From: Arctopsyche grandis
Lineage: Eukaryota > Arthropoda > Insecta > Trichoptera > Hydropsychidae
NCBI RefSeq assembly: GCF_051622035.1
Contig: NC_135360.1
Span: forward strand, 5,146,001 to 5,210,000
Direction: 5' to 3'
DNA: 64,000 nt
Each line of letters starts with the position of its first letter. The first letter of the stretch is position 1. A program made the position numbers and the translations under genes. Below the pieces are notes generated by a model, which did no database searches, was not told where the DNA came from, and saw only the letters and a program-made list of their open reading frames with translations. This document shows, in pieces, positions 1-62,871 of the stretch.

Positions 1-999
1 TAAGACTATATTATATCATATCATAATATGTATGTCATATATATTGTACTCAAGTCTTATATGTACATATATATTGTACTCTATATATGTATATCCTTCA
101 TTGTCATTATTTAATATACAAATAAATAAGTCGGTTTTACTTTTGAATTTCTGAAACAGTTTGACAAAGGAAGGTTAAAGTCGGAATTCTCGTCGACCCG
201 CTCCTTCCTGTTATTGGTTGCACTTTGCGAGTACCCTTGTGCTATTGGGACAAAAATGGGTTTATCATCGTCTATTCCAAAGGTAGAGAGCAAAAAAAAA
301 ATTTGCCATTGTAATAGACAATGATGAACCCACTTTTTGTCCAGATAGCACTGGGTCGCGCCTAAACTTACTTGAAAAATCCTCACACTTCATCGGATCG
401 ACTATACAGATAAAATATTGCCCAATGTAACTTTTTTTTTCTATTTAACAGAAATATGTACATTTATTTAATGCGCAATTTCATTTATTCTAATGCGCAA
501 ATGATTCGTTTTAAGGAGCAAAGTTATTTTTCTAAACGCATTAATAAATTAAATCTTACCCATTAATAAATGGTAAAAGTTGGAATTCTCGACAGGGCGG
601 ACCCTCTAGGCTCGGAAGCAAGGCTCGGTCTACCCGCTCCTTCCTGTCATTGGTTGCTCTTTGCGAGTACTCTTGTGCTATTGGGACAAAAAATGGGTTT
701 ATCATCCTCTATTACAAAGGTAGTGAGCAAAAAAAAATTGGCCATTGCTTACAATGATGAACGCATTTTTTGTCCAAATAGCACTGGGTCGCGCCGAAAC
801 TTACTTGTAAATGCTCACGCTTCATCGGATCGACTATACAGATAAAATATTGCTCAATGTAACGTTTTTTTTTTATTTAACAGAAATATGTACATTTATT
901 TAATGCGCAATTTCATTTATTCTAATGCGCAAATGATTTGGTTTAAGAAGCAAAGTTATTTTTCTAAACGCATTAATAAATTAAATCTTACCCATTAAT

Positions 1000-1433
1000 A
1001 AATGGTAAAAGTCGGAATTCTCGACAAGGCGGACCCTCTAGGCTCGGAAGCGAGGCTCGATCGACCCGCTCCTTCCTGTAATTGGTTGCTCTTTGCGACT
1101 ACTCTAGTATTGCCGTGCCCTGAATTAACTCGACTCTTACCTGATGAAATACTCCGACATATACTGCCTGGTTTGCATATAATTTCGGACGGTCCGGCAG
1201 CTTACGAAAATATTCCGAATTCCGGTAAAAATGGTTATAATTTCGTGGATCCAAATGATAGATATACATATAGCTGCCCAACCGTCCGAAATTATATGCA
1301 AACCAGGCAGTATATGTCGGAGTATATCATCAGGTAAAAGTCGAGTTAATTCAGGGCACGGCAATACTAGGAAGTTTCGGGTCGACCGAGCCTAGAGGGT
1401 CCACCCTGTCGAGAATTCCGACTTTTACCATTT
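1000..1433. mobile_element. Foldback (long inverted repeat) element
   Basis: The ends AAATGGTAAAAGTCGGAATT and its complement at 1414-1433 enclose arms of about 180 bases. The inner arms, from ATTGCCGTGCCCTGAATTAA to the GGACGGT region, are also near-exact complements. The outer arm is continuous with the tandem unit on its left. A decayed relative is at 11095-11460. No coding capacity. Confidence 0.8.
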
Positions 1434-1436
1434 GTA

Positions 1437-1520
1437 ATATTTATTTATTTATTTATTTATTAATAGTTTTGGACCATTGTGGCATAACAGGAAGAACCTA
1501 ATGCGCCACAATGGCCTACA
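1437..1520 (-). mobile_element. SINE/LINE 3' tail, hairpin type CCATTGTGGC
   Basis: A (TTTA)n run is followed by a hairpin at 1474-1514 with stem CCATTGTGGC/GCCACAATGG around the shared loop core. In minus orientation this is a retroposon 3' end with its (TAAA)n tail. Confidence 0.75.
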
Positions 1521-1811
1521 TTTAACAAAGATAATACAAGTAAAAAAAACAGAAAAATTAGAAAGCAGAATAAAAAAATAATAAAATGTAACAAAAGGAA
1601 AATAATAATACAAATAAAATAGTACATAAAATGTACAAAAGAGAAAGAAAAAGTAAAATAAATCAACAAAATATGAAGAAGAAGTCAGTAGTGTAGTGCG
1701 AAATGTTGAGGTGCCAGTACGCTCGATTTTGCGGCCCCCAAGGCCCCGTTGGCGAAGGCCCAGGAGGCGGAGGCCCCGGGGTCGAAGTCCCGAGGGGCGC
1801 CGTGGGGCCTG

Positions 1812-2030
1812 ACGGATTCTGGTATACATATAATTTCGAAAGCGACTTAAATATATTTATGTTTATTTGTTCGTGACAGTCAATTTAATAAAAAAAAACA
1901 AATGAGTATTCAAATAAATTTATATAAAATAAAACTATTCAAATAAATTTAATAAAATGATTACTATTAGACTAATCATGTTTAAGCGGTTTATATTACA
2001 AATACCGAGCGAAGCCGGGTAAAACCACTA
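1812..2030 (+). mobile_element. Dispersed repeat ending in CCGAGCGAAGCCGGGTA
   Basis: It starts GGATTCTGGTATACATATAA and ends with a GAAGCCGGGTAAAACCACTA motif next to TAGTAT. Relatives: 6120-6345, 31105-31536, 57727-57950 (minus) and a fragment at 5560-5603. The class is unknown. The GC-rich GGGGCGCC-type block just upstream (1725-1810) recurs before the 5560 copy, so it may belong to the element. Confidence 0.7.
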
Positions 2031-2159
2031 GTATACACATATACATATAATATATACAAAGTCCCTTTCGAAATTATATACTAGATAATAATTCCTTGAA
2101 AAATATACGAGTATATCAATTACTCAGTTCGGCCTCTAAAGTTATAATTTTTTCAATCA

Positions 2160-3650
2160 CGCTATGATGACTATCCGATCTTTTATCATAATCATATTTT
2201 TTGTATGTATGAGCATTATCATTACATTGTTTATATACATATGTATGACTTACTTAATGAAAATTGCTTTTAATATTATGTATATGTTGTCGTACGTATG
2301 TACATACATACAAAGATATATTATACTCGATATACATGTAGATTTGTTCGATGTGTACTTGTAAAAGTACAAGTTTCGCACGTTAAACTTTTCACGCGGT
2401 CGAATCTCTCGCCATTTGGATATCGCCTGGGGCCAGCGGTTCTCCACATTTTGCGAGGAGGGGTCGATCACCGTCGGTCAGAGTGCCACGAGCTAAATTC
2501 ATCCGGTTGTTTAAGTACTTATACTAATTCAACAATGCCGCTTAACCTCCTAGTTTTTGCCGATGTGCTGCGAATTCAATTCACTTTATCGCGACAAAGG
2601 GATTTCCTATGTTTGAATTTCGTTCTCGTACAAGAATGTAAACCTGAGAACCTGAGAAATGCATCGCACTTATATTGTCCACTTATTGTATTAAAAACAG
2701 TGTTGCGGTGTGTTGAAATAATAATTCATTATTTATATCATCATCACAAGTCGTTGTCTGTGATGACATTGAATTCTCTAAATTGAGGTAATTCGACGTG
2801 TAATGCCTTATAATTTCAAGCTTAATTTTAAAAATAAATTATATTATATAATTATTTAAGTACTTTTTCCTGTCCGCTTAATTTTTTCAATTATTTTTTT
2901 TTTTGTTTTTTTTTTTTTAATTTTGCACCTGGAATTGTTTTAATTCGAAAGCGCTATGTGGAATTGTTTTAATTCGAAAGAAATATGTGGCACGCGTGTC
3001 AAACTTAAGAAGCGAAAAGTTTTTTAATATATCCAATATTTTATCGCTACATGCATTTTTGAAGAAATCATATGCGGTGCAGTTTATTATATTTTTCTCC
3101 AATTGATAATAAAAATAAGTATATAAATGAAAGATTAATAAAAAAAAAATACATATTTTTTTATCGTCTGTATTACATATCAGGTGGGCATTCTATCGGG
3201 TGAATCTTCTTTCGTGGTGCCCTTGTCGTTGGATCTTATATCATTGGACCTTATGTCGTGATACGAATATATTATCACCATATATATATATAATAGCGCT
3301 ATTGTGTGTGTATCTGTCTGCGATAACGGTCGCCGTACTATAATAGTCGTTTTGATTCGACATACATACATATGTATGTATGTCACAGCCAAAACAATGC
3401 CAACAAAACGTACGAAAATAACTGTTTGCTACCAATGTTTCCTCTACGGCAATAGTCTCTGAGCATTTAGCGCCATCTATTGAAAATTTATTTTATTAAT
3501 AAAATTTTCTATTGGTGTTTTATTTTGTTTATATTTATAGTTTCATATTAAACAATTAAATTAAATATATTTAAACGGTATTTGAGAAAAATTCGACCGC
3601 GTGCGGTTCAAACACAGGACCGACACATTTCTTTTAATTTTTTATTTATT
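2160..3650. other. No gene seen; AT-rich, weak hAT-end-like fragment
   Basis: Only short, low-complexity open frames occur. A stretch at 2428-2475 (CCAGCGGTTCTCCACATTTT, then GGGGTCGAT) resembles the terminal repeat of common hAT elements, but no partner end is seen. A 30-base direct duplication (GGAATTGTTTTAATTCGAAA) lies at 2931-2990. Confidence 0.5.
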
Positions 3651-3671
3651 TAATAACTTAATATATCATAA

Positions 3672-4036
3672 CTAAAGGGCGGATAGGGAGCGTGCTTTTT
3701 CCAGGAATCAGGGCGTTTTGGGTCTATTTACAAAGCTAGAGTGAAAAAAAAAGGTTCGGCAAACCTTTAACAAAGCATTTACAACAATTAAACTATGAGC
3801 TGCGCGCTTTGGGAACGCACTCTAGTCATAACCCATGCGATGATATTTCATCGGGAACAATACTAGTCGTATTTCATTACATATGATTAGAGGTAGGATA
3901 GCCAAGGTGCCGCTCATTGCTCCATTGTTGTAAATCATTTGTAAAAAAGGTTCGGAAAACTTTAAACAATGCATTTACAACATTTGAACAATACGCGGCA
4001 CCCTCTGAGTCCGGGCTTTACATATGATACTCTAGC
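3672..4036. mobile_element. Two decayed TAGAGGTAGG-type hAT miniature elements
   Basis: 3676-3830 carries GAGCGTGCTTTTTCCAGGAA and CTACAAAGCTAGAGTG-like sequence in common with 47885, 48887 and 59575. 3889-4036 begins TAGAGGTAGGATAG and contains ACAATGCATTTACAACATTT, as in the complete copy at 59273-59484. Confidence 0.65.
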
Positions 4037-4039
4037 CTA

Positions 4040-4985
4040 GAACGTACATATATGGTGTTAAGAAGTGATCGAAACTTCGATGCGTACAAAAACACCTAAG
4101 CAATTGGTTTCGTCAGTATATGAAGCATTTGCCCATAAACTGAATGTCCGAAAATTCGAATCCCACAATAAGTCGACACAATAATTCGATTTTCAAAACG
4201 GAAGAGATCTTCATTCCAAACGTACATATGTACGTTAATTCTCGTACACTTGCCGTACACATTAGTATGATATCATGTGCGTTTTAATTGTATTCCCGTG
4301 GGTGGGGTGAAGCGTACCCAACGCTTGACCCTAATTTAGCGCTTCCTGTGGCTTTGCTCCTCTCGTCAAATGCGAATTCGACATTAGCAAAGGACTCTCT
4401 ATATCTGCATGCACATGTGCACGAGGACACCCTCAGGTAATTATCGTGCCACGACACGAATACACTTAACACGGCCACTTAACGTGTCAAAATCTGAAAG
4501 AATCCGACGGTTTTGATAAACGATTGCTGTGACTCTCGTGTGTCCGCTCCGGACAGGATAATTGGATGATTGTGACGATGATGAGGCGGCGCCAAGTATC
4601 CTCTTCGAGCGTCTTCCTTCATCAGGAGACGACACATCCTGGATTGCCGAGCTAAATTGCCGCGACAATTGCCTCTCGCACCCACCCATGCAATTACCCT
4701 ACGTCACGATTTTTTAATAGCTATAAAGCGTAATTCACGACATGGTCACCCTACGTATATAGAACTGCTACTTACCATTAGCCGTCGAAACGATCTAGCA
4801 TGAGACTTACGTAAAATGTGCATGCTATCGCATTCACTCCCCCGCCAGTCGACCCGCGATGGCCAATTGCATTTCGTTTCAGTTTCGCATTGCATGCAAA
4901 TACAACATTGTTCGTGCGTATAGCGGTCGGTAGAATTTGACTCTCATTTTTTGTTAGTTTTGAGTTCGTGTTTCGTATTTTGAAG
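4040..4985. other. Non-repeat block without a gene; possible regulatory sequence
   Basis: This part is less AT-rich and shows no sign of the window's repeat families. Open frames on the minus strand are short and have no recognisable product. It lies about 5 kb before an Oaz coding exon, so it could hold intronic control elements; nothing specific is visible. Confidence 0.3.
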
Positions 4986-4987
4986 TC

Positions 4988-5322
4988 TAAGCCCGCTTTA
5001 AAGGTCAAGGAATTTGACCCTTAAAGCCCTCAACATGAGGCCACCCCCCCCCCCCCCAACGAATACAGTCTAAGAGACCCTTTCGTCGGAGAACGAGACG
5101 GTTGTTCATGAATATCGCACAAGAACAACCGCACATCACTGTTCTATACAAAATAAACAACAACGCATGAACACATAAAGCGCGCATGCGTTAGGAAACA
5201 ATACCTGAAATGTGCCGTGCGAATGCACGCACACTTCAAGTAAACATATGTACATGTATACATGTTTATACGTGTACAACATGCACACACACACACACCA
5301 ACACACACACACACACACACAA

Positions 5323-5378
<56 letters not shown>

Positions 5379-5470
5379 ACAAACCACAAAAACATACACA
5401 CACCTAAACAGCAAACGCACACTCACACCACACACATTCACAGAATAAAAACAATAATAATAAATAAATA
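4988..5470 (-). mobile_element. TAAGCCCGCTTTAAAGG element with CA microsatellite
   Basis: It starts TAAGCCCGCTTTAAAGGTCA and includes an oligo-C run, the ACGAGACGGTTGTTCATGAA block and a CA repeat. Other copies: 43740-44187 (+, GT repeat at the same place), 61352-61650 (+), 33391-33520 (+, partial) and 35577-35665 (-, partial). The microsatellite is therefore part of the element. No transposase is seen. Confidence 0.75.
5282..5400. repeat. (CA)n microsatellite
   Basis: Nearly pure CA dinucleotides with a few interruptions, inside the element above. Confidence 0.97.
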
Positions 5471-5989
5471 AAAATGAACGTATTTTGAAATATTTACATT
5501 TAAAATTTTAATATAAAACTCGGCGGAGTCACCGGGGGCGAAGTCCCGAGGGGCGCCGGGAGGGGGCGCCGGATTCTGGTATACATATAATTTCGAAACG
5601 ATCTAGTATGATAATATGATAGTAAGATCTAGATTCACGGTTGCCAATTACATTTCGTTTCAGTTTCGCATTGCATTTTGGTCAAGAAATATGTACAACC
5701 TCGTAGGAAACCTTTTATTTTGTTGCTTTTTTATTGAACGTGTTGTATTTTGGGATTAACTTAATGACTACCGCATAGTATAGTCATCATAATGTGTCAC
5801 TTTAGTCGGGTACATACATAATGTTTGTTTATATTACATATTTAAAAGCAATACGAACAAAATTAAAAATAATTTTGTAGTGCATTGTTCATATATGTAT
5901 GTAGGATTGAAAATTTCCAATAAATAATACTACCAATTGGCTTAAAACTTCTGGAATAAGGCATCAATCAATCCATTCTGTTCAACGAC

Positions 5990-6097
5990 ACTATATATAG
6001 TCGAAACAATATGTAGTCGAACCAATATATATTCGAACCAATATATAGTCGAACCAAAATATGTATGTATAGTCGAACCAATATATAGTCGAGCTAA
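5990..6097. repeat. Minisatellite, unit about 18-20 bases
   Basis: Five to six copies of ATATATAGTCGAACCA with small changes. Confidence 0.85.
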
Positions 6098-6119
6098 TCT
6101 AGCACGAGACTTACGTAAA

Positions 6120-6345
6120 ATGTAAAATGGATTCTAGTATACATATAATTTCGAAAGAGACTTAGTATATACATATGTTTGTTTGTTCGTGGCAGTCAAT
6201 TTAAAAAAAACCAAATGAGTATTCAAATAAATTTATATAAAATAAAACTATTCAAATAAATTGAATAAAATATTTACTATTAGATTAGTCATGTTTAAGC
6301 GGTTTATATTAAAAATACCGAGCCGGGTGAAACCACTAGTATTTT
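6120..6345 (+). mobile_element. Dispersed repeat ending in CCGAGCCGGGT
   Basis: Near-copy of 1812-2030, with the same start (ATACATATAATTTCGAAAGA) and the same end next to CACTAGTAT. Confidence 0.7.
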
Positions 6346-6381
6346 ATATTTTACGTTTCCAATGAAATCATATACCTAACC

Positions 6382-6780
6382 AGCAGAATAGACTAGTGGT
6401 TAGCATATAATGCTTCGAACAAAGTGGTCACGTGTTCAAATCCCACTGGTTACTGCTGGTTAGACCTTGGATTGGTGACTTCAAGTCGATCGTTTCCTAT
6501 CAAAGTTTGCTAATTTATCCGATTTTCATTGAAACGGTTCCAGCAAATTGGCAACCTCAACCATTTTCTCGCAATTTTTGAGTGTTCAGCAATCTCGAAT
6601 TTCGCTGAATTGTATAAAATGCTGCAAATTTAAAAATGTAACTATAAATGTCTCTTTGCATGTTAATTGATATGTATTTACTTTGTATAATACTAATAAT
6701 ACTTGTACAACGTTTCGGGCCAGGAAGGCGCATTTAGGTTAGCTGCTCCTGGTCTTTCTGGTACAAATTAAAAATAAATA
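6382..6780 (+). mobile_element. tRNA-derived SINE
   Basis: The head has a polymerase III A box (ACTAGTGGTTAGC) and B box (GTTCAAATCCC). The body contains GTCGATCGTTTCCTATCA and TTGAAACGGTTCC, shared by all copies of the family. The 3' hairpin CCAGGAAGGC near 6720-6761 is followed by an (AAATA)n tail. A second, minus-strand copy abuts it at 6785-6905. Confidence 0.88.
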
Positions 6781-6784
6781 AATA

Positions 6785-6905
6785 TAAATTGACAAACTCT
6801 GAAAGGAAACGATCGACCTTGGAGTCACACATCCAGCAGCATAGCCAGGGATATAGCCCATGATCATACAATTGGAAGAATTACACGCTAACCATTGATC
6901 TATGT
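6785..6905 (-). mobile_element. tRNA-derived SINE, partial
   Basis: The body TTGACAAACTCTGAAAGGAA then ACGATCGACCTTGGAGTCA matches the family in minus orientation and is followed by a decayed tRNA-like head. Confidence 0.7.
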
Positions 6906-7119
6906 TATATATTGAAAAAGATGTTAATGTTTTTTTACACTTACCATTCACGAGCTGAGCTTTAAACATGTGCGGTTTGCTATAGTGACGCATCGGGGAA
7001 GTCTCTCATGTCACTATGGTGAAATTTGTAATAAAATAGAATAAAAGCGCAATATATTTACGTTTTTAAAGGGCAATAATACGCAAAAAATATTAAGAAA
7101 TATCACGCGTATAGGAAAT

Positions 7120-7330
7120 AAACCACCCTTTTCACGCACCCCCGCCCACTTTTCCTCCCCGTAAATGCGGCGGTTCCCTAATAGATAGGTTTCCTCGTAC
7201 GCAGCATATAAATGGTCGGGTATTTATTATCCGTTCTGAAGGGGGTGGAGATGAAGGGAGGGGAAATGATACGAAGTCGCGAAACGCAAATTGTGATTGA
7301 TGTCAGCGGTGGGAGCTCTCACTTCAACGT
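7120..7330. promoter_or_regulatory. GC-richer unique block, possible regulatory element
   Basis: The block stands out from AT-rich flanks, has runs such as CACCCCCGCCCAC and AAGGGGGTGGAG, and is not repeated in the window. There is no open frame with a product. A regulatory role is only an inference from composition and position in the Oaz gene. Confidence 0.25.
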
Positions 7331-7723
7331 GATAATATATTTTATTTCAATTTATACGCGAGTGTATCAGTACATTATATCAATGTAAATACCACATACA
7401 TACATATTATATATATATGTATATATTAGTAAATACGAATGGTATACATTCAGGCCCAACCTGGGGGTATATGGCGCCCCTAGGCAGATTGCTTTTCAGC
7501 ACCCCATTGTCATAATCATTGTCATTCCAAAAAAATCAGTGTCATATTAAAATTTAGTGGGTCAAAAGTAGTATAGATTGATTAGACTCCGCTCCGGTAA
7601 GAGAAAAAAGTGATGATCAGTGTTATCAATACTCACATTTTTAAAGTTTTATTAGAGCAAAATACATCGATCGATTTGACGTCGATCGTTTTGTAATATT
7701 TTATTTTAATTTTTACATAGATA

Positions 7724-8237
7724 TTTTATTTTATTTTATTTTATTGTTACAAATCAATATACACTTGCCATTACAGAGTTGCTCCAATGCGACGGGTGTA
7801 CGTTAACGAAATACAGAATACATAAACAATCAGAAATACAGTAATACATACATATACAATCAGAGTATATAGCATATAACAATTAATCAGAAATAATAAT
7901 CATAGAGACATCTATGGATTATTTTTAGATATTTTTTTTGTATACAATTTTTATACATATAATAAATATGAAATTATAGAGATATCTATAGATTTCAGAT
8001 TACTGTGTATAATTATTACAAATTATACACACAGATTTTGTGACAACAGGAAATGATCTAATACCAATTTTCAGGAACCGTTTCAACAATGATCAGATAA
8101 AATTGGCAAACTCTGATAGAGAAACGATCGATTTGGAGTCACAAAACCCCCAAACCTAACCAGCAGTTTGACGAGGACACGAACCTTCGACCTCAGTGGT
8201 GCTAAATATATACGCTACCACTAGGCCAAACTGCTGT
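7724..8237 (-). mobile_element. tRNA-derived SINE, near full length
   Basis: On the minus strand the head reads TTTGGCCTAGTGGTAGCGTA (A box), then GGTTCGTGTCC (B box), the common body, and a 3' hairpin of the ACACTTGCC/GACGGGTGT type followed by (TAAAA)n. Confidence 0.87.
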
Positions 8238-8267
8238 CTATGTATATATGTGTATATATGTATGTAT

Positions 8268-8560
8268 ATAACAGGAAGGCCTAACAGATAAACCCCATTG
8301 TGCCTTTGCGCCAGAGACATATATGGAGAGAAACCGGAGATATAACAATAACTCAAGGTTTGCAATAGAAAATTGAATAGGAAAAGCCAATTTTACAGGA
8401 ACTGTTTCAATGAAAAACAGAAAAATTGGCAAATTCTGATAAGAAACTATTGACCTCGACAAACCAAGGTCTGGCCAACATCGAAACTCTAGTGGGAATC
8501 GAACCCGTGACAACTTGCGTGAAAGAATACAACACTCACCACTAGAACACGCTGCAGTTG
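8268..8560 (-). mobile_element. tRNA-derived SINE
   Basis: The minus-strand head GTGTTCTAGTGGTGAG and the strong B box GGGTTCGATTCCC are clear. The 3' end carries a decayed GGAAGGC-type hairpin near 8270. Confidence 0.85.
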
Positions 8561-8890
8561 GTTTGAAAGGAAGACCCCAATGCGCCTTCTTAGACATTTA
8601 ATTACAAACATTGCAGCATTTTTTATTAGATAAATCGCTGTATTTCGAGAAGAAGAACACGAAATTAACAACTAATTGATTAATTAATTAATCCATAGCG
8701 ACATCTATAGATTTAGACTTGTACATAAATCAAATTCAGATATTTGCGACATAGCGGGTAGGATGGTTTTTGTCAATTTGATGGACGAACCGTTTCAACC
8801 ATGAAATCAGATAAATTGGCAAACTCTGATACGAAACGATCGACTTGGAGTCAAAAATATCCAAGTCTGACCAGCAGTATTAATGATTAG
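8560..8890 (-). mobile_element. tRNA-derived SINE, head missing
   Basis: Decayed hairpin tail at 8562-8600; body with GACGAACCGTTTCAACCATG and ACGATCGACTTGGAGTC. No A or B box remains. Confidence 0.75.
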
Positions 8891-9002
8891 CACGGAATCA
8901 AATCTGTCTGTTTTTATGGTTTTTATTTTGATTAAAATTTTCAACACTATATTTATCACAAATTAAGACTTTTGCACTATTCGCGTGCACTTCATTTTAT
9001 TA

Positions 9003-9530
9003 TTAACTAGCCGAACCTGGCATGCGTTGCAATGCCACAATAACGCGTGCTATTCCCGTTCCCGTTCCTGTTCCACAGACATTCAATTTAATGTATACAT
9101 AGGTATAGATCAGTGGCGTGCGATAAAATTCTCTCTTTTTGTCGTACAGCCTTACTTAGTATCCTGCACGTGCACATTAAGTAAGGCTGTACGACAAAAA
9201 GAGAGAATTTTATCGCACGCCACTGGTATAGATATATTTGTTGACGTGGGCCATCCGCTGTGTGTTTGTGGTACAACCCTGACTGGTCAGTACATTCGAG
9301 TGCGAGGTAGGCGTGGCGCGATTTTGTCACACTCTCGGCGTGATACGTTGAAGGCGGAGTAGCTTTACTTTCGCGTCAGTAAAATCGTAATTACGAATAT
9401 TATTTTTAAGAGGTTTTTTCACAGTAATCTTCCCGGACATGTATACAACAAATCCTGAAAGTTCCATCGTAATCGGTTTAGTGGTTTAGGAGCCTATAAG
9501 AGACACACAGAGACATTCAATTTTACATAT
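9003..9530 (+). mobile_element. CTAGC-GAACC repeat carrying an inserted hAT miniature element
   Basis: It starts CTAGCCGAACCTGGCATGCG, has a CCCGTTCC minisatellite, and includes TTCCATCGTAATCGGTTTAG and AGAGACACACAGAGACATTC. Relatives lie at 15398-15990 (-), 21195-21890 (+) and 61140-61310 (-). The class is uncertain; the ends CTAGC ... GCTAG suggest short inverted ends. Confidence 0.7.
9111..9225. mobile_element. hAT-type miniature element with perfect 8-bp target duplication
   Basis: A 115-base near-perfect hairpin begins CAGTGGCGTGCGATAAAATT and ends with its complement. GTATAGAT flanks it on both sides (9103-9110 and 9226-9233). An 8-bp duplication with a CAGTGGCG end is the hAT pattern. 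No coding capacity. Confidence 0.93.
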
Positions 9531-10028
9531 ATTTATTAATATGATTTATACAAATGCTGATAAAATTAAAGAGCGGCCGATTTAAGTTTGCAGCCCTCTT
9601 CATACAGAAGTTCTAACATTATCATCAAATTGAATTTTCATCACAGTGACAGTTCTTTTTTCTATAAATATATATGTATGTATGTATGTATGTACTTACA
9701 AAAAAAAACGTAAATAAGTATACATAGCGGTGATGGGAGAGTCTGCCCATCATTTGTCAAGATTTCCCGTCCGCAGCAAAGTGATATTTATCTATTATAT
9801 CCCCGGCTCTATTAGCGCCGTCTAGGACACCTCATGTGTATATTTTTCCATTTTTCCCAACTCAAGACGAATGATGATAGCGCACACATTTTCCTTCTGG
9901 AAAAGTCCCCGACATTGAAATGCATTATCACACATTATCGCAGCTTCATACGTACATACATACATATATAAAATTTCTGGTGGATTTTATTATGAGTCGA
10001 ATTGATTTTCGGTGTTGATTTGTTGCAG

Positions 10029-46227
<36,199 letters not shown>

Positions 46228-46418
46228 TTGATCTGATTAAACAAAAACAATATTCGTTTCACGAAAGCAATGTTTCATGTGATATGTTTCATTTTTTTGT
46301 TATTATGATATTCAAAAAGTGAATACGAATTTGTACATTTGCGATACTTTTAGACCGATGATGATTTAGATGTCGTTTTCTATAGATTTATTATTTAAAA
46401 ACAACAAAAAAAAAATTA

Positions 46419-46480
46419 AATAAAAAAAAACCTAGCTCGTAATTTATATAATAATATTATTATATACATAAATAAATAAA
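46419..46480 (+). terminator. Polyadenylation signals of the Oaz gene
   Basis: AATAAA is found at 46419-46424 and twice, overlapping, at 46471-46480, 190-250 bases after the stop codon. The intervening sequence is AT-rich and non-coding. Which signal is used cannot be told. The convergent gene's own signal is at 47092-47097, leaving about 600 bases between the two 3' ends. Confidence 0.6.
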
Positions 46481-47091
46481 ACAAAAATAGTGTTCGTTTG
46501 TTCAAGTTTAGAACCATTGGTTATTTACGTCTTTTTAAATGCAACGTTTCCCCAATATTTGTACCGTTTCTATTATTAACGTTTTTTCTTTAACGCAATT
46601 TGTTATTTATTATGTACAAAGTTCGTTAATCATTTGTGTACAGTTATTGTTTTTAAGTTGGTTAATTTTAATATTAATAATTGCACTTACATATATCATT
46701 GTCGAAAGCAATACCATGCAAAAAAATTAGCCCTTTGAGTTCCAATAATGTTTAATTTTGGTGAATTTTAACGCTGCCGTCCGAAGTTATGACAAAATTC
46801 AAACGAAATATTCACTAAAATCCTCATAAAAATTCATAACTTCACAAAAAAAAATCTATTTCAAATAATCGTTTGGCTCATAGAGGGTTAAAAATAGAAA
46901 CAATATGGAATCTCACTGATTTTTTTTTTCTTTAAATTCGTCCAAAAAAATATAATAAACTAAATAATAAACACGTGTAATATTTTAGACAGACCAAAGC
47001 GTTCTTATTATGAAAATATTATTTTTATTTTCAATTATATAAATATATATTAATTTACATAAAAAATAAATAATACATACAAATTGCAAGT

Positions 47092-47097
47092 TTTATT
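47092..47097 (-). terminator. Polyadenylation signal of the CLIP protease homologue
   Basis: AATAAA on the minus strand, 98 bases past the stop codon, in an AT-rich 3' region. No better candidate lies between it and the stop. Confidence 0.6.
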
Positions 47098-47194
47098 ATT
47101 TGATGTACGATTTTTTTTTTAATATTTTTGATAATGTATTACATCAATTGACAGGAGCGACGACAAAACGAAATTAAATGCACAATCAAACGAC

Positions 47195-47356
47195 TCAAGA
47201 CGCTTGTCTGGCTTGTATCCATGGTAAATAGTTGACAACATTGACATAGGCTGCTGGTATTCCTTGGGATGCACATCCCAAGCCCCAAGCCACGAGACCA
47301 GCAAGAGTCCAACGACCTGGAGTCGTCTCGCAGACGAGACCTGATCCTCCATCGCC
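47195..47356 (-). CDS. CLIP protease homologue last exon: GDGGSG motif and C-terminus
   Basis: The acceptor TGTCGTTTCAG ends at 47357. The exon opens with GDGGSGLVCE, where active enzymes read GDSGGP; the catalytic Ser is thus replaced by Gly475. It continues WTLAGLVAWGLGC and AYVNVVNYLPWI, the usual C-terminal helix, and stops at TGA 47197-47195. A polyadenylation signal lies about 100 bases further on. Confidence 0.93.
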   Translation of the reverse strand, partial: GDGGSGLVCETTPGRWTLAGLVAWGLGCASQGIPAAYVNVVNYLPWIQARQAS

Positions 47357-50300
47357 CTGAAACGACATTGAAAAGCATGTTAAAACTTTCACAAAATGAA
47401 AACTGCTGGCAGAATCGTTCGTGGAACTCACCGTGCAAGCGTCTTTGTTCAGTTCTCCCCCGGCGCATACGAAAGCGGCTCGATCCAGTATGTACGCAGT
47501 TCCCAAACGCGTGGTTCTCAGAGTTGTTTCGCATGCTGCAGGAGCCAAGATTTGCACATCCACATTTTTCAGTATCGTTTGATACTGACCGGTCACACCG
47601 AATGCATCCTTGCCCCAGCCTGCCACCCAGCATCTGAAAATATCGTATCAAAAGGATCAAAAATAGAAAAGTGCATGTACAAATGATTAATTTGGCATGC
47701 TGGGGTCTAGCGTATATTTAAGTTGGTATGCTGATAAACCAATTAGTCAAACGAATCTCATTAGCTTGTATATAAATAAAAAATTGCATTAAATGGTCAG
47801 TATTTTTCAAAAAAAGGTATGTATTTTAACGTAGAGATTAGATGATTGGTGCTCTTCAACCATTTGTTTAATGTCGCTGATCACTAGAGGTAGGACCGGA
47901 AGCGTGCTTTTTCCAGGAAACAAGGCAAACTACAAAGCTAGAGTGCAAAAAAAATGTTCATCATAAAAAATTATTTATTTATTTTATTCTAAACAGACCA
48001 TTGTGGCATAACAGGAATTCCTAAAGCGCCACAATGGTCAAAAAATATAACACAAAAAAAACAAAATAACAATTAAACATAAATTAATACATAACGAAAA
48101 TAATATACTCATCAATTATACATAAAAAAATACATTTGAACATAAACATAAATACATCTATACATAAACATAAAAAATAGCATTTAATAATAACAGATAA
48201 GTAAAAATAGCATTTAATAATAACAGATAAGTAAAAATATCAAATAAAAAATATAGCATAAGGAATGCCTTGCATATATAAGAAACAACTACAAATACAA
48301 AACATCCCTGTAAGGCCCAAATGGAAGAGAGCTAATCAAAATTTCACTCATAAATCATAATCAATCATGAAAACAATGATGAGCGCAGACTACCAGATAA
48401 ATGGGTTAGAGTAATTTCCGACAATTTACGCTCACTAAGGTGGAAAATATCACATTCAGTCTCGGCAGCAACGATTTCATTAAGAAGTCGAATAGCTCTT
48501 GGAATAGGAGCCATTCGAAAAAGAACTGTGTGGGCAGGAGGTACAGCCAGCAAATGATGATGTCTACCACGCACATAGTGATTAGGGACATAAAGTCCCA
48601 ACTGCTCCAGCAACAACGGGCATGACGTATTACCACGTAAGAGCAGGAGAACGAAGCGAATTAATGAGAAGTTTCTCCGAAGTTCAATGGAATTATACCC
48701 AAGCATGCCCAAAAGGAAAGGAGTGGGGTAGAGATATGGGTAATACCCATATTCTTTCCTATATAGGAAACGAAAAAATGCACTTTCTCAATCTCAAAAA
48801 TGAACAATGCAGTGCGAACAATGAACAATGCAGTGCGAACAATGAACAATGAACGGCGCAAACTTGGTCCGCTCTTTACTGATCACTAGAGGTAGGACCG
48901 GAAGCATGCTTTTTCCAGGAAACAGGGCATTTTGGGTCTATTTTCCAGGAAATAGAGAAAACTACAAAGCTATAGTGCAAAAAAAAGGTTCATCATAAAA
49001 ATGAACAATGTACAATGAACGGTGAACATTAAACAAAGGACGGCACGCTTCCGGTCCTACCTCTACTAATCACCTGATGTCGCGTAACAGTCAATAAGGT
49101 GTCACGACCAATGGACCAACGATTTACCTATGCGGTAAAAATATTCGACGGTTTTGATCCATGCTTCATTTGGAGTTGACAGGCCGACCGATCAAGAACA
49201 ATAAACTACGTCTATCACTACTGCTGCGTCTTTCATTCCCATCTAAGAAACACCTTTATACGGCCACGTGTCAGTATTATTGTAGTGAGACAGACGGTCA
49301 GTATTAATATATATTTTGATCAGCATGAATATACATATGTACTTATGATTTGGTGGAGTAAAAAAATTGGCCATCTAATTATTAGATAGTCAGTTGTATC
49401 AGATTTTTGTCTTTCTGATCTTTCGTTGTTTGCACTGGCAGCTATGATACTGACCATTTAATATAAATACATTTTAATATTGTTGCGTAAAGATAGGACG
49501 ATCAGTTCACGCCATCTAATCAGAGAGCTCGCCCAATTAGCGGGCGGCGCTCATCGTCTAATCAGAGAGCTCGACTTATTGACCAATCGGAGAGCTTGAC
49601 TCACCGACTAATGACCAAGCTCGACTAAACAACCAAACCCACGCGGCTTACAAACACGTATAAAAGCCAGTGGGTTCGTCTCAGGATTCATTCAAAACCC
49701 AGCTACCACCAGAAGAGCATATATTAAAGATATGAAACCTACCTGATTGTTTTCTTGTACCTCGACTTGATCCCTTAAGGGGACAGAGTATTCAGAGGTA
49801 AGCCCATTGATGTATAATACACATAGATGGGCCCTGACGTGTGATTTTGGTCGGAGATTTTGTCTTCACTAACTGAGGGGTGCGGGGGGGTTAACTAGCG
49901 GGGAAGTTGGGAAAAAAATGTTTTTTTCCCTGCGACGCAGCGGTACCTACCTACCTACTAAGAGAAACATGTGCATGCGCCGTGTATTTTGCATGCGCCA
50001 AAAGGGAGACCAGTATAAGACGTGAGGGCGGATCTAGTGTATTATACATCAATGGGTAAGCCTCTGAATAGTCTTCAATACAAAATTAACTTTAACCTAT
50101 TACATGTGTATTTATCTAAAACCACATTTGTATTTATTATATTAGTTGAAATTTAAATCATTTTGCTCTTCTTTAACTAGTGCAATTATAGTTCTCAAAA
50201 ATTAAATACTTTTTAAGTACCTTTGTCCATCAAAGACTTGAGCTGGTGATGGCAAGCATACTGGAACAATAGCAGGTGTACCCACTTGCACTCCACCAGT

Positions 50301-53288: not shown

Positions 53289-53299
53289 GAGTGAATGTG

Positions 53300-53480
53300 T
53301 GGAGAGTGGACGAAATCCTGAGCCAAAATGGCGATTGCGGCCAACGTCATCTGTTTAAATATGTCAATTTTCCACGGACAACACTGTTCGCCGATTTTCC
53401 AGCCGGTAAAACCGACGCACAATGGCACCAGCCGGGAAAATTTAATTGGCGCGAATAATCGCCGCTTCGACAGAGCCGAA
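53300..53480 (-). promoter_or_regulatory. Likely 5' leader/promoter region of the CLIP protease homologue
   Basis: The block just upstream of the proposed start exon is GC-richer than its surroundings and unique. It contains ATATTTAAA at about 53357 (minus strand), a weak TATA-like word. No start site can be fixed from sequence alone. Confidence 0.3.
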
Positions 53481-53539
53481 ACCTATGCAAATAAATTTCG
53501 ATCCATTTGTCCATTCATATTGTAATATATGTACACATG

Positions 53540-56100
53540 TTTGTCCATATGTATGCATATTATGCAACATTATCCAATCGCTTCTGGTTTCAGGCGGATT
53601 TTGAAAACTTGCATTCCCAAAGATTATTTCGGTTAAAATTATTCGGATCACATTAACTTAACTTTGAGGAAACCGAATAAAGTGCATTCGGTCGGTAACT
53701 TTTGAAATTAATAGGCAGTAGTTATGTATATACGATTAGTCAGTTTGGTTATTAAGTGCTTTCATTAGATTCATAAATATGCATATCCTATAATGGTAAG
53801 AAATCATTTATATGCGTAATAGCACAATAGACTGTCAAAATAAACTGACCATGTATTTATATATACATACATTGTCCAATCAACTATACATATACTGACC
53901 GCAATTTTTATTAATAACTGAATACTGACCAAAAACATTTAACCCTTTGAGTGCTGACGTATTTTCTGTTGAAAGCCCGCCACGCTGAAAATTTCATATA
54001 TTTCTAACTAGAATTATTTAGAAATCCAATAGAAAGCAGGCATAAAAATTGTAGTTAATTCAAACAAACTCTATATCACTACCCTAGATAACTACCGCCG
54101 AGGATTTCGAGTTTTGTAAAGGTGTGCTTAGACTCTCGAATATATCTTGCAACAATATAAACTAATCAAAAGAAGTCTATTAACGACTGTATTTTCCCAA
54201 AACTAGTTCCATCTTCTTCATTGTTGTTAAAATGTAATGCTCACAATCTAAATGCCAAGCCACAATGTAAAGTACTCAGCAGTTAGGGATTTCCATCGAG
54301 AAATTCTGCTATAAAACAAAAATAAATAAATTCAGAAATTCCGGTGTAAACCAGTCTTTATAAACATTGACACGGATTACACGACCCATGTTCAATGCAT
54401 TTTTTTTCAATGCTACCTGAAAAGGCTTAGCGGGTAGTATTCTACTTTATTTTTTAAATACTCGCATTTCAAGCTCATGGACTAATTGGCAAAACGCCGA
54501 TCGGCGTTGGTCAGGTTAACGTTACTGACCAATTAAAGACTGGCCTAAATTTAAACCTTAAATAAAAACTAACTTCCTTACTGTAAATACAACTTAATGT
54601 CATGTTTTTATTATTCAATATAGACAGTCTGATCCTTTTTTTTTTCGGAAATGGTAAAGTTTTTTGAGGACCTATTATGACCTGCCTGAAATCACTAATA
54701 TTTAGTGATTTCAGGCAGGTTCCATTTTCTTTAATTTACATACATATGTATATTCAAAATTTATATTAGAAAGTGTATTTTATTTAAATGGACAGTTACT
54801 AATACTCCCTTTCGAGTAGTAAATTAAATAAGTTGTCAGTAATATATCAAAATAGTCAGTAAGTGCTATAAATGTTCTATCGATCATCTAATAAATTTAT
54901 AAAAGGTTATTATTTAAATTAAACAGTCAGTAATTAAAAAAGAACACTCACAGTCCGATGGTCAAAATCAAATCACTGCTACGATTTGAATGTTTAAAAT
55001 ACTGTTTTAACTAACCATTTATAGTTTTTAACGACGTTTAATATTTTTTGCTGATAATTTTAATGAATTATTTAATTCAGATACTGACCAAAAATTTGAT
55101 TTTCGTTTTTAGAGTTTTTGTTACATAATAAATTGATAATATTTAAATATAAGTAATGTTCTCATTTGTTCGAACAATTATTGGATTTTCATTGTATGAC
55201 TTTATAGCAAGTAGTTAATACATTTAACCATAGATATACATATTTAATATTCTAATATGTAGATCATTTGTTCAATAAATACTGACCAATTAATCAAATA
55301 AATATATACAAATCTATATAGTAATCAAATAATGAAAATACGAAAGTCACAAATTTCCATATTTATTTCACAATATGTAAAAAAAAATTGATTTGTCTAC
55401 AGAATATTTTAAATAAAAATAAATAAAAAGGGAAACCCAATACGTACCAGTATTTATAACACTAAAAATTATAAAAATTTAATAATCGGTGAACCATTAG
55501 ATGACGAGCAAACGCGTTCCGGATTGCAATTACTTGCACAATGCCCTTACAGATGCATCACACAAGTCACCAACATTGAATCATTTACATGTAAAATTTT
55601 AATTTTGTTCGGCCTTTTACGATTACAAAATGACCCAATTGTGCCAACGTAATCTGAAGTACCTGTCGAATTAATTGTGACCGTCAAACTTGGTTTTCCA
55701 GGTCATTGAACAAGGATGCGAATATTACATAATTATTTCATGATCCAATCTATCATGCATAATATACCTAATTATGTATAATGTAATGAATGTGTTAGAC
55801 GATTGGGTATAAAATAACATTTCGAATAAACTACTTTGTAGCCGAAAGGGTTAACTGATTTGAACACTGATTTTCGCTAATAAGCCGATTTGGTTTTTTT
55901 GTGCGCGCTACTTTGAATTGTCATACAATGGTGACAATCATGCTGTCAACATTATCATCGCCAATGCCGGGAATTACTAATAACATATTATTCCATTTTT
56001 ATAACGCCATTCATGCTATTTCAATATAATATTATATAATTTGATTGCATCGACACATTTGGTATCCTCAATTGAATAATAATTATATATTTACATACAT
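53540..56100. other. AT-rich intergenic sequence; repeated ATACTGACC word and one perfect hairpin
   Basis: No gene. The word ATACTGACC occurs several times (see findings). A 19-bp perfect hairpin with a 3-base loop (ACCTGCCTGAAATCACTAA) is at 54680-54720. Confidence 0.45.
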
Positions 56101-56108
56101 ACATATAT

Positions 56109-56650
56109 TGGTGCTACTTTAGTGTGCGGTCTACCTTAGCATGCGATCTACCTTTGAATAGCAGTCGATTATTTTTTACTTTATCTATGTTTTTTATTTG
56201 TATCGTAGCAACGAAATGTTTATTACAATTTCTGTTTTTTCCTGCCGCCCCATAATGTTGTCGAAGCATTTCTATCAAAATATAAACCAAATCTTAAATG
56301 AATAGGGCCAACCTTAACTTAACCTAACCTATCCTGACCCTTAAGTAAATAGGTGTTGGCTACTAAGAAGTTTTTTTTGTTGTTGTGAAAATATTGATGA
56401 AATAAAACTTTAAAAAAAGATATCTTAGCAGCCAACACCTATTTATTTATGGGTTAGGATAGGTTAGGTTAAGTTAAGGTTGGCCCTATTTATTTAAGAT
56501 TGGGTTGTTAGGGTCGGTATTATTCAGTCAGTGTCACACGCGAGAACTGAGACAGTGAGACCGCATATAAAAGTATGTAAACGTAGATAAAGGTAGATCG
56601 CATGCTAAAGTAGATATGTGAAGGTAGACCGCATACTAAAGTAGCACCCA
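56109..56650. mobile_element. Foldback element, TGGTGCTACTTTAG ends
   Basis: The outer ends TGGTGCTACTTTAG and CTAAAGTAGCACCCA are complements. Inner arms near 56300-56365 and 56430-56500 (GGCCAACCTTAACTTAACC) are also complements. No coding capacity. Confidence 0.85.
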
Positions 56651-56954
56651 TATATTTATATAAAAAAATACATCAGCGCAAATGGTTTTTTACTTCTTTT
56701 GAGGCATCTACACCTCTTTCCCACCCTTGTATTAATCCATACGGGTACTATACTGTACCCAAAGATTAATCAAAAGAAGGTTTTTTTGTATCATAAAGAC
56801 TGCATCACATGCAGTCATCTCCTATTGACATATTCCTCATTTGTGACGCCATTAGTAAGTAAAAAAAGAACCTGTTCTGATACATAGATGGCTACCTGGA
56901 GGGACTCCTGCCTTGAGAATAAGGTTCAATCTCCGAGATATGAAGCTCTTTAGT

Positions 56955-57180
56955 CGCGGGGGTTTATTGGCAGGATAACTCAATAGTAAGCGCATATTGC
57001 TAGCGACTGAGAGGTCCCAGCTTCGAGCCCTAGTTAGACCTCGATTGAAAACTATCCCTATATTGGCAAACCCTTTATCTAATGATAAAGGGTTTGCCAA
57101 TTTATCTGATATCATTGTTGAAATGGTCCTCTTAAGTTGTCTAACTATCCTCTATTTGTCACCACTGTCTGATTGAATGT
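56955..57180 (+). mobile_element. tRNA-derived SINE, diverged
   Basis: Head GGATAACTCAATAGTAAGCG with B-box remnant CTTCGAGCCC; body TTTGCCAATTTATCTGATAT. The body contains an extra inverted pair (CAAACCCTTTATC/GATAAAGGGTTTG). Confidence 0.72.
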
Positions 57181-57726
57181 AATTTCAAATGTACATGTAC
57201 ATAAAATTTATATACATATAATACATGCATACAAGCTTGGAATAGGTAGATGGCATGGTTCGGTGATTATTCCGCTCAAATCGATCTCTATCAGGTAAGT
57301 TAAATCAGGCACTTGAAAATTCCACCAATCGGGAGTAAACACGCGAACTATCATTTGGCAAGTGCCAGATATTCCGTATTCGCGATTTTTGTGATAACGA
57401 TTGTCGTGTGCGCGATCGTAATATGTGAAATAATCAGTTTACCAGATGGTATACATACATATTATATATACATATGTATATACATAGTTCTGTTTATACA
57501 ATGAAGATGTCCAATGTTCAAATCAGTCAAAACTTTATTAGATTTAAATGAAATTGACTTAAACCGAAACAATTTGCATCAAACTGGCAGAATCTAAAGT
57601 AAATAACTCAATCACAACCGATTAGTATTTTTTTTTAATATGAAAAACCACTAAATAAAATTAAAATGAGCTGTTCATTTAAATTTAGATTATATACATA
57701 TGTAAAATTGTAGTTTTATTAATCAA

Positions 57727-57950
57727 CTAGTGGTGCTACCCGGCTTCGCTCGGTATATGGAAATTAAATGAAAACCACGAAAAAAATCTTCATTTGTTTT
57801 TTTATTAAATGTATTTAAATCGAAAAAAAATAGTATTATTTAACGACGGACCAATCACAAACGTCTTTGACCAATCCAGCCAGTCAGAAACGACTATGAT
57901 GACGACAGCCAATCAGAAAACGCCGTTTCGAATTTATATTATATATAAGA
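57727..57950 (-). mobile_element. Dispersed repeat (GAAGCCGGGTA type)
   Basis: Minus-oriented: TACCCGGCTTCGCTCGGTAT at the left end next to CTAGTGG, and CGTTTCGAATTTATATTATA at the right. Confidence 0.7.
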
Positions 57951-58049
57951 TTTTCATTTTGAATTTTAGAACTGTTTTATATATTTGAATAAAGTGTCAT
58001 CTATACAAGATGTAAAAAAGCATTATCAAAAAAAAAAATCGTTGTAAAA

Positions 58050-58560
58050 ATGTATCACTAGATGTCACTCAAGTCGGTAAAGCAGCGCGCTGCACGCCGA
58101 TGTACGTCACTCGACAGTCAGTGATAGAGCGTTGAGGCTGGGTTTTGTGTCCAGTCGTCGTCTGTTTTTTGATCGGCAGAGTCGCGCAACACGGGCGTTT
58201 CCGGTCTAAAACCGAAACCATACACTTCCGGTTTGTTTCGCATTCACAACTTCCCGTTCTAGTCCCACGCCCTGTGACGTTTGCTCGAAAATGTCAACCC
58301 ATATATAAGTACGAGCGAGATGCATCCCGCACGCAAATTCGATCCGGGAAATTGATCTAGTGCAAATTTTCCGGTCGGGACTCCACTTCCGGTCGGGAAA
58401 ACCGCAATATTAATGCGCCCGGTCGTGGGTGCTGTTGCCCGGGCCCACCTCACTGAATATCGATTGCCCGTTTCAGTATTTATAGAAACGCATTGTTGTT
58501 TCCAACTGCAAAACATTGCAGTGACGTATCGCGATTGATTCCGTGTTTATTTTTGATTTA
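58050..58560. promoter_or_regulatory. GC-rich unique block with TATA box
   Basis: It has TATATAAG at 58302-58309, several CCGGTCGGGA-type words, CpG-rich runs, and TCAGT at about 58118. No open frame of interest. It could be the promoter of the gene whose first coding exon is at 61730 (plus strand, 3.4 kb downstream) or a far element of the protease homologue. Confidence 0.4.
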
Positions 58561-58845
58561 TTTATTTATTTGATTGGAAAAAAAGTAACGGTCGATTTAT
58601 GGCCGCGAACGAATTGTGCGTGTTTGTATTGTGTGGTAGTTCTGATAGTTTTGTTTGTATTAGAATTGTTACCATTTCGCTTTACATAGTTTTATTGCTA
58701 TTTGCTCGCTTGAGAAATATAACTTTTAATATTTCTAGACTATTTTCAGTTTTGACTTACTACAACATATTTCAAAGTACAAGTATGCACATATATAAGA
58801 AACCTATTTTTCAAAAGTCATTTATTTAATTTATAATTTGATTTA

Positions 58846-58920
58846 TTTTTCGACCATTGTGGCGCATTAGGGACTCCTGTAATGCTACAATGGTCCAAAC
58901 TTTAACTTAAATAAATAAAT
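58846..58920 (+). mobile_element. Retroposon 3' tail, hairpin type GACCATTGTGG
   Basis: Hairpin at 58852-58895 with loop CGCATTAGGGACTCCTGTAA, then an (AAAT)n tail. Confidence 0.75.
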
Positions 58921-62468: not shown

Positions 62469-62871
62469 CGGTCTCCGTGACGAGCCGGAATGTTAAATTA
62501 CAGAAAACGCAAATATCGGAAGGCAAAGATCGAAAATCGGAAGATCTTAAGTCGAAAGATCAAAAAAAAGGGTGCATGGTAAACGGTAAATACTCACGTA
62601 CATACTCACTTAATTTGCGCGAGCAGGGTACAACAGGAACAAAAGGAACACGCTTTTCCTCCCGTATTCTGCGCGCGCACATTAATACGGGAAGAAAAGC
62701 CTGTTCCTCTTGTTCCTGTTGTATCCTGTTCCCGCAAATTAAGTGAGTATGTACCGTTTACCATGCACCCTTTTTTCTGATCTTTCGATTTAAGATCCTT
62801 CGATTTTCGATCTTTGCCTTCCGATATTTGTGTTTTCTGTAATTTAACATTCTGGCTCGTCACGGAGACCG
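62469..62871. mobile_element. Foldback element, CGGTCTCCGTGACGAGCC ends
   Basis: A 400-base near-perfect palindrome. Each arm holds AAATATCGGAAGGCAAAGAT, GGGTGCATGGTAAACGG and ACAGGAACAAAAGGAACA-like modules. Confidence 0.88.

What the first reader, a model, noticed from the sequence alone, without database searches (positions are those of the whole stretch)
1474..58895. One 3' hairpin, four different stems: a retroposon tail that covaries
SINEs and LINE fragments here end in a hairpin whose loop keeps the core CGCATT, about 8 bases, CTGTAAT (sense strand), while the stem exists in at least four unrelated but self-complementary versions: GACCATTGTGG (1474-1514, 13078-13121, 47996-48039, 58852-58895), CCAGGAAGGC (6720-6761, 18083-18124, 42725-42765), ACACTCGTC (11571-11608, 28781-28819) and CAGTGAC (10996-11029). 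Stem pairing kept while sequence changes, with a fixed loop, is what a recognised RNA structure looks like. Probable role: the 3' mark by which the LINE reverse transcriptase picks its own RNA and the SINE RNAs, with the stem versions reflecting separate LINE/SINE lineages.
Basis: partly seen in the sequence, partly recalled or inferred. Interest (0 to 1): 0.75.

Follow-up and report, generated by a model that had tools for sequence, protein, structure and literature searches.

The report
Shared retroposon tail hairpin with drifting stems
Jumping genes in this probable insect genome end in one recognisable RNA hairpin whose lower stem has changed letters between families while mostly staying paired, probably the handle by which their copying enzyme grabs its own RNA and that of hitch-hikers; this kind of signal is already known from fish and plants.

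Summary
The hairpins are real and lie at all ten stated places. Genome-wide, the core pattern occurs 6,697 times against 53 for the reversed control.

The "fixed loop" is mostly an internal loop plus a short upper stem; the exact core is in 3 of the 10 listed copies. The stems are not all unrelated: A, B and D share an outer GGCCA:TGGYC. Even so, the lower stem pairs in 95% of cells on a 78-row alignment, and two positions show all four Watson-Crick types.

Three LINE families (A, D, F) carry the hairpin near the end of the 3' UTR, before an (AAAT)n or (AAAAT)n tail. tRNA-headed SINEs carry stems B, C, D and a D-like stem. SINE-D matches LINE-D in stem, flank and tail unit. No LINE directly joined to stem B or C was found (0 of 30 and 0 of 16 sampled copies). 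SINE-C matches LINE-F in 3' flank and partly in tail unit, not in stem.

Best reading: a stringent-type LINE/SINE recognition hairpin, a known kind, whose stem is held mainly by shape and does not simply track LINE lineage.

The parts
1470..1517 (-). stem-A hairpin (LINE-A 3' end type with loop GGTTCTTCC), followed by (TAAA)n tail
   Evidence: R1 57.3 bits, E 7.7e-17; sequence
13076..13122 (-). stem-A hairpin, 3' end of an internally deleted LINE-A
   Evidence: R1 49.4 bits; LINE ORF2 match ends 189 bases upstream
13530..13964 (-). ORF that holds an endonuclease-domain piece of the same LINE-A copy
   Evidence: ORF listing, flank reading; same protein stretch as L053 ORF2
47994..48040 (-). stem-A hairpin of a young LINE-A subfamily (core CGCTTT..CTGTTAT)
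   Evidence: R1 56.8 bits; same hairpin in the intact 988-aa copy L053
48365..48787 (-). C-terminal part of LINE-A ORF2
   Evidence: ORF; 150 scored genome matches, all 96-100% identical; ORF2 match ends 330 bases upstream of the hairpin
58851..58897 (+). stem-A hairpin; no LINE ORF2 match within 1200 bases upstream (probably 5'-truncated)
   Evidence: R1 57.2 bits
6717..6765 (+). decayed stem-B hairpin of a SINE-B copy
   Evidence: R1 17.1 bits, E 0.0044
18080..18128 (+). stem-B hairpin; SINE head at 17675
   Evidence: R1 48.5 bits; tRNA-like head and GCCAATTTT domain
42722..42769 (+). stem-B hairpin; SINE head at 42374
   Evidence: R1 56.2 bits
11568..11612 (-). stem-C hairpin; SINE head at 12031
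   Evidence: R1 48.1 bits
28778..28823 (-). stem-C hairpin (ACACCCG form, one C.A mismatch); SINE head at 29265
   Evidence: R1 38.6 bits
   Evidence: R1 36.5 bits; duplication; head
10989..11035 (-). stem-D hairpin
   Evidence: R1 48.9 bits
6977..7023 (+).
   Evidence: R1 47.5 bits; sequence

Best explanation
This is the 3'-terminal recognition hairpin of a group of related stringent-type LINEs and of the tRNA-headed SINEs that use their machinery. The RNA forms a variable lower stem of about 10 bp, an internal loop (GCAU / UAAUG side), a conserved short upper stem (URGR / YCUG) and a variable 4-5 nt cap, followed by a short linker and an (AAAT)n or (AAAAT)n tail. The LINE ORF2 protein most likely holds the conserved upper part by sequence and the lower stem by shape, then starts target-primed reverse transcription in the tail repeats. 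Because mainly pairing matters, the lower stem drifts: families differ at most stem positions yet stay mostly paired. Shown: anatomy, abundance, pairing across families, LINE and SINE carriers. Inferred: protein binding, SINE dependence on these LINEs, and the SINE-C with LINE-F and SINE-B with LINE-D pairings.
For: Pairing: 94.5% of 237 cells standard on 14 representatives against 37-47% when partners are slid; 10 of 17 pairs change on both sides. On 78 distinct rows 92.8% against 37-49%, lower stem 95.2%. Own arms pair at 9.6 of 10 positions (minimum 7), arms of other types at 5.5; for the six most variable pairs 5.7 against 2.2. Fold z-scores -3.97 to -8.23 for 8 of 10 representatives. Position: 17 of 20 chosen LINE-D-type 3' ends carry the hairpin at E < 1e-9 downstream of the ORF2 stop, as do the intact LINE-A copy L053 and 4 of 4 fetched LINE-F ends at E <= 7e-7. 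An ORF2 match ends 70-184 bases upstream of 18 of 25 stem-D copies (two of these are LINE-F) and 189-403 bases upstream of 7 of 27 stem-A copies (one of these belongs to a LINE-F), of none of 16 stem-C copies. Open ORF2 frames reach 988, 972 and 960 aa. SINE domain within 400 bases: stem B 25 of 30, C 14 of 16, D 5 of 25, A 0 of 27. SINE-D and LINE-D share stem, 11 of 14 flank bases and mostly the TAAA unit. LINE-A and LINE-D keep two tryptophans 19 positions apart (W338, W357), the spacing of W325 and W344 in the ZfL2-2 tail-binding region.
Against: The tree-aware null gives only one column pair at E <= 0.05 and it is one column off a stem pair; the best five true pairs have E 0.07, 0.16, 0.40, 0.40 and 3.64, a further one 13.4, so independent compensatory events are few. 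Two shuffle measures on A4 do not exceed chance (pairs changed on both sides 121/500; further pair types 283/500). Abundant or young families carry mismatches: C2, LINE-D subfamilies, and LINE-F with two neighbouring broken pairs. C2 and E fold little better than shuffles (z -1.7, -2.0). The core varies too. No activity, binding or expression was tested.
Confidence: 0.82

Rival explanations
1. Each stem version marks its own LINE/SINE partnership: a LINE with stem B and a LINE with stem C exist or existed, and stem sequence itself carries specificity.
For: Stem D is shared by LINE-D and SINE-D. My LINE sampling was limited: a protein search scores only the best 150 candidates, of 11,104, 5,978 and 2,634. 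Four of the 16 stem-C copies have under 700 bases held upstream.
Against: 0 of 30 stem-B and 0 of 16 stem-C copies are directly joined to a LINE. Three stem-B copies have an ORF2 match within 1200 bases, but each has a SINE body or the LINE's own stem-D hairpin in between. A pattern that allows a LINE-D-type lead-in TGAC before stem B gave 45 hits, none of them TGAC. SINE-C flank matches LINE-F at 10-11 of 14 bases although the stems differ. LINE-D subfamilies tolerate broken pairs.
Confidence: 0.3
2. The hairpin serves another step of the element RNA's life (3' end formation, stability, export or protection) and not enzyme recognition.
For: It sits just before AATAAA-like tail repeats; no binding data exist here.
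Against: It is shared by LINEs and by tRNA-headed, presumably pol III SINEs, which would not share mRNA 3' end processing; the tested precedents (UnaL2, ZfL2) are recognition elements.
Confidence: 0.12
3. Inherited palindromes without any selection on pairing: the stems are just the sequences of a few founder elements.
For: Only a few independent stem changes; the tree-aware test is marginal.
Against: Each main family is self-complementary over about 10 bp in the same register with the same upper part; for the six most variable pairs other-type arms pair at 2.2 against 5.7; the upper pair at columns 24-30 of A3 also switches between G-C and A-U.
Confidence: 0.03

Closest known systems
Zebrafish ZfL2-1/ZfL2-2 and eel UnaL2 stringent-type LINE tails (L2 clade; Hayashi et al. 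2014, PMC4176376, abstract and sections 3, 13 and 18 read)
   Same: 3' stem-loop needed for retrotransposition; the stem can be swapped with the other LINE's stem, a stem that cannot pair fails, the loop is specific; SINEs share LINE tails; tail-binding region between EN and RT with two tryptophans 19 positions apart, a spacing also found here
   Different: Those stem swaps were engineered; here several stem versions occur naturally in one genome. The conserved part here includes an internal loop and upper stem; the sequence differs; no assay here
Maize/sorghum L1-clade LINEs with ZmSINE2/3 (Ohshima 2013, PMC3747384, section 4.3 and passages read)
   Same: Conserved loop and flank, variable stem with compensatory changes, shared by LINEs and SINEs
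   Different: Plant L1 clade with another conserved sequence; SINE and LINE stems there were not described as separate types in the section read
Gecko SINE and I-clade LINEs of Aedes aegypti (an entry under Protostomes in the table passage of Ohshima 2013 that I saw, PMC3747384)
   Same: Arthropod SINE/LINE pair
   Different: Listed with I-type LINEs; no hairpin is described in the passage read

Membership tests
Stringent-type LINE with 3' recognition stem-loop | ORF2 with endonuclease and reverse transcriptase | tested here: met
   LINE-A: Pfam RVT_1 9.8e-27, above its cut-off; Exo_endo_phos 1.1e-4, 22.5 bits, under its 24.5 cut-off. LINE-D aligns with LINE-A over 981 columns, 36% identity. 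LINE-F was not scanned
Stringent-type LINE with 3' recognition stem-loop | Stem-loop at the end of the 3' UTR, before short tandem repeats | tested here: met
   17 of 20 chosen LINE-D-type ends, LINE-F 4 of 4, LINE-A L053; tail units
Stringent-type LINE with 3' recognition stem-loop | Partner SINE with the same 3' end | tested here: met
   SINE-D with LINE-D. For SINE-B and SINE-C only architecture and flank are shared, not the stem
Stringent-type LINE with 3' recognition stem-loop | Conserved specific upper/loop part, stem free if paired | tested here: inconclusive
   Sequence pattern fits, but the tree-aware test is marginal and the core itself varies (CGCTTT, CTGTCAA)
Stringent-type LINE with 3' recognition stem-loop | Retrotransposition requires the stem-loop; ORF2 tail-binding region binds it | not testable with these tools
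   Only the W..W spacing of the tail-binding region was compared
CR1/L2/Jockey group | Placement in that clade of an RT tree | not tested
   No reference LINE proteins were on hand; the resemblance of the ORF2 is recalled

The most novel reading that the evidence does not exclude
In one genome a LINE enzyme mobilises SINEs whose tail stem is unlike any LINE's: stem identity has been uncoupled from LINE partnership, so SINE-C (stem ACACTCGTC) is read by LINE-F (stem CACATTGAC) through the shared upper part, 3' flank and tail repeat alone. It would be a natural version of the zebrafish stem-swap experiment.
Probability: 0.35. Interest if true: 0.55.

Novelty: new member of a known kind. Interest (0 to 1): 0.42.

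Why it matters
It appears to extend the stringent-tail principle to several coexisting LINE and SINE families of one probable insect genome, with thousands of copies and natural stem variants, including imperfect ones. That makes a ready test set for which parts of a 3' tail a LINE enzyme reads, and for how SINEs keep or change LINE partners.

Tried and rejected
Considered and set aside: DNA-transposon or Helitron ends, because the element bodies read are SINE or LINE and the tails are repeats. A known Rfam family: no match at gathering score in the window. ARAGORN found no tRNA gene in the window, so SINE heads were judged by eye and by box/domain patterns.

Led nowhere: LINE relatives in genome contigs and viral contigs; 133 and 101 pattern stretches, none confirmed by tblastn. 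Paper searches (listings only, apart from the two papers read in part) showed no insect hairpin of this kind that I recognised; this is no proof of absence; hybrid hairpins with A and B arms, 0 and 0 hits; they argue against arm shuffling but would also be 0 under simple descent.

Weak points: the 20 LINE-D-type ends were chosen by me from the listed matches. classes copies by nearest stem: one truncated B copy (L067) fell into A, and L107 did not fall under F; its small classes B, C and A outside the expected carrier (3, 2 and 1 loci) show no clear unit. Alignment A4 has 97 rows, 7 of them antisense reads of stem-A hairpins; these were counted but left out. Alignment A2 held four rows in the wrong orientation and was replaced by A3. 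The flank strings were picked by eye.
Full report
Where it is. The window is C6:5146001-5210000 of an unnamed 475.7 Mb assembly in 189 contigs. I take it for an insect genome from its look; that was not tested.

Observation. Hairpins exist at all ten stated coordinates. A covariance model (R1) from 14 representatives (A3) finds 11 strong window copies. Six window copies are among the 14 rows that built the model (58852, 18083, 11571, 10996, 6982 and, as the identical hairpin of L053, 47996), so their scores are partly by construction. Genome-wide counts of exact patterns against the reversed pattern: core 6,697 / 53, stem A 1,748 / 0, B 4,041 / 0, C 1,545 / 0, D 144 / 0. Each stem pattern covers only part of its family; the D pattern leaves out the young LINE-D form, and counts for stem E, young LINE-D and LINE-F were not obtained. 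In 24 IMG/VR contigs picked by the exact core, R1 lists 13 matches at E <= 1, at most 22.3 bits, mostly on the core alone.

Structure. Ten representatives folded singly give, for types A, B and C, the same anatomy: a lower stem of about 11-13 bp, an internal loop of 3x3 or slightly more, a 4-bp upper stem U-R-G-R / Y-C-U-G, and a 4-5 nt cap. D and the 6977 hairpin fold slightly differently inside. The exact core is in 3 of 10 listed copies, and young families vary it: CGCTTT..CTGTTAT in LINE-A, CGCTTT..CTGTCAA in LINE-F.

Pairing. On A3, 94.5% of 237 cells are standard pairs against 37-47% when partners are slid by 1-3 columns; 10 of 17 pairs change on both sides; two pairs show all four Watson-Crick types. 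On A4 (97 hits, 78 distinct rows, 7 of the 97 antisense) 92.8% of cells pair and 95.2% in the lower stem; two of the five measures do not beat shuffling. A3's structure was drawn from these sequences, and A4 is fitted to the model, which favours pairing. Own arms pair at 9.6 of 10 positions, other-type arms at 5.5, but 25 of 152 cross combinations reach 8 or more, most of them A 5' arms with D or 6977-type 3' arms, so the stems are not four unrelated inventions. A tree-aware null in the style of R-scape on 81 rows gives only one of 946 column pairs at E <= 0.05, one column off a true pair; true pairs stand at 0.07, 0.16, 0.40, 0.40, 3.64 and 13.4. Stems changed in few steps and as blocks, so formal covariation is weak although complementarity is clear. 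Imperfect stems are common: 74 of the 100 listed C hits read CACCCG, a form with a C.A mismatch in the sampled copies; LINE-D subfamilies read CAGCGAC..GTCACTG or CAGTGAC..GTCACTTTG; LINE-F breaks two neighbouring pairs.

Carriers. In the held loci, the SINE central domain lies within 400 bases upstream for 25 of 30 stem-B, 14 of 16 stem-C, 5 of 25 stem-D and 0 of 27 stem-A copies. Of the five B copies without it, four show the SINE 3' body in the 26 bases before the stem; the fifth (L055, 719) has no LINE match upstream. A tblastn of LINE-A and LINE-D ORF2 finds a match within 1200 bases upstream on the same strand for 3 of 30 stem-B, 0 of 16 stem-C (four of them with under 700 bases held), 18 of 25 stem-D and 7 of 27 stem-A copies. 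In the three B cases a SINE body (L061, window) or the LINE's own stem-D hairpin (L086) lies between. Two of the 18 and one of the 7 are LINE-F ORFs (L107, L039). LINE-A: L053 is intact, 988 aa, and ends in stem A. LINE-D: a protein search led to 20 3' ends that I chose; 17 carry stem D at E < 1e-9, one has a deleted loop (13.9 bits), one is broken in mid-hairpin, one has none; one intact ORF2 has 972 aa. LINE-F: open frames up to 960 aa among 150 listed matches, 4 of 4 fetched 3' ends with a related hairpin at 25-29 bits. SINE-D (L073-L076) and another SINE with a D-like tail (L080-L082) were read.

Which LINE drives which SINE. Tail units: stem-A copies outside the SINE class are mostly TAAA in 25 of 30 loci and mostly TAAAA/TAAAAA in 0. 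D copies outside the SINE class: 14 and 6 of 25. SINEs with stem D: 6 and 1 of 7. SINE-B: 7 and 14 of 24. SINE-C: 2 and 7 of 14. LINE-F: 0 and 2 of 3. Stem E: 0 and 2 of 2. The remainder were ties or had no clear unit. First 14 flank bases: SINE-D and LINE-D 11 identical, SINE-C2 and LINE-F 11 (C1 10), SINE-B3 and LINE-D 11; most other pairs of families 3-9, with 10-11 also between SINE-B and SINE-D forms and the D-like SINE. The strings were chosen by eye, so this is suggestive only. No LINE with stem B or C was found, but the census is incomplete.

Mechanism. Hayashi 2014 (abstract, sections 3, 13, 18 read) showed in zebrafish L2 LINEs that the hairpin is required, that stems can be exchanged between the two LINEs, that a stem that cannot pair fails, and that the loop is specific; ORF2 binds through a region between EN and RT. 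LINE-A and LINE-D here keep two tryptophans 19 positions apart in that region (W338 and W357 in LINE-A), as W325 and W344 in ZfL2-2. Ohshima 2013 (passages and section 4.3 read) describes the same pattern, conserved loop and compensating stem, in plant L1 LINEs and SINEs. The present hairpin therefore works, most likely, like a known kind of signal; clade membership was not tested.

Verdict. Real, mostly as described, ordinary in kind. The useful part is the natural variety of stems, including imperfect ones, within one genome and the hint that SINE stems need not match their LINE.

Noticed in passing
window 7721-9101 and 11543-12899: 92% identical copies of a 1.4 kb block holding several SINEs, including the missed stem-C hairpin.
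   Followed up: partly
window 9113-9223, 62629-62723, 63181-63275: Long near-perfect inverted repeats with arms of 30-40 bp, perhaps small DNA transposons.
   Followed up: no
window 40567-41556 and 44590-46227: ORFs on the + strand that look like zinc-finger proteins (judged by eye).
   Followed up: no
window 192-1105 and 21899-22802: Tandem repeats of 432 and 215 bp units.
   Followed up: no
window 19340-19870: A 530-base (AT)n tract.
   Followed up: no
SINE bodies, e.g. window 42374-42769 and 17675-18128: SINEs with stems B, C and D and the D-like one (L080-L082) share a central domain (GTTTGCCAATTTT..GAAACGGTTCC), perhaps a lineage-specific conserved SINE domain.
   Followed up: partly
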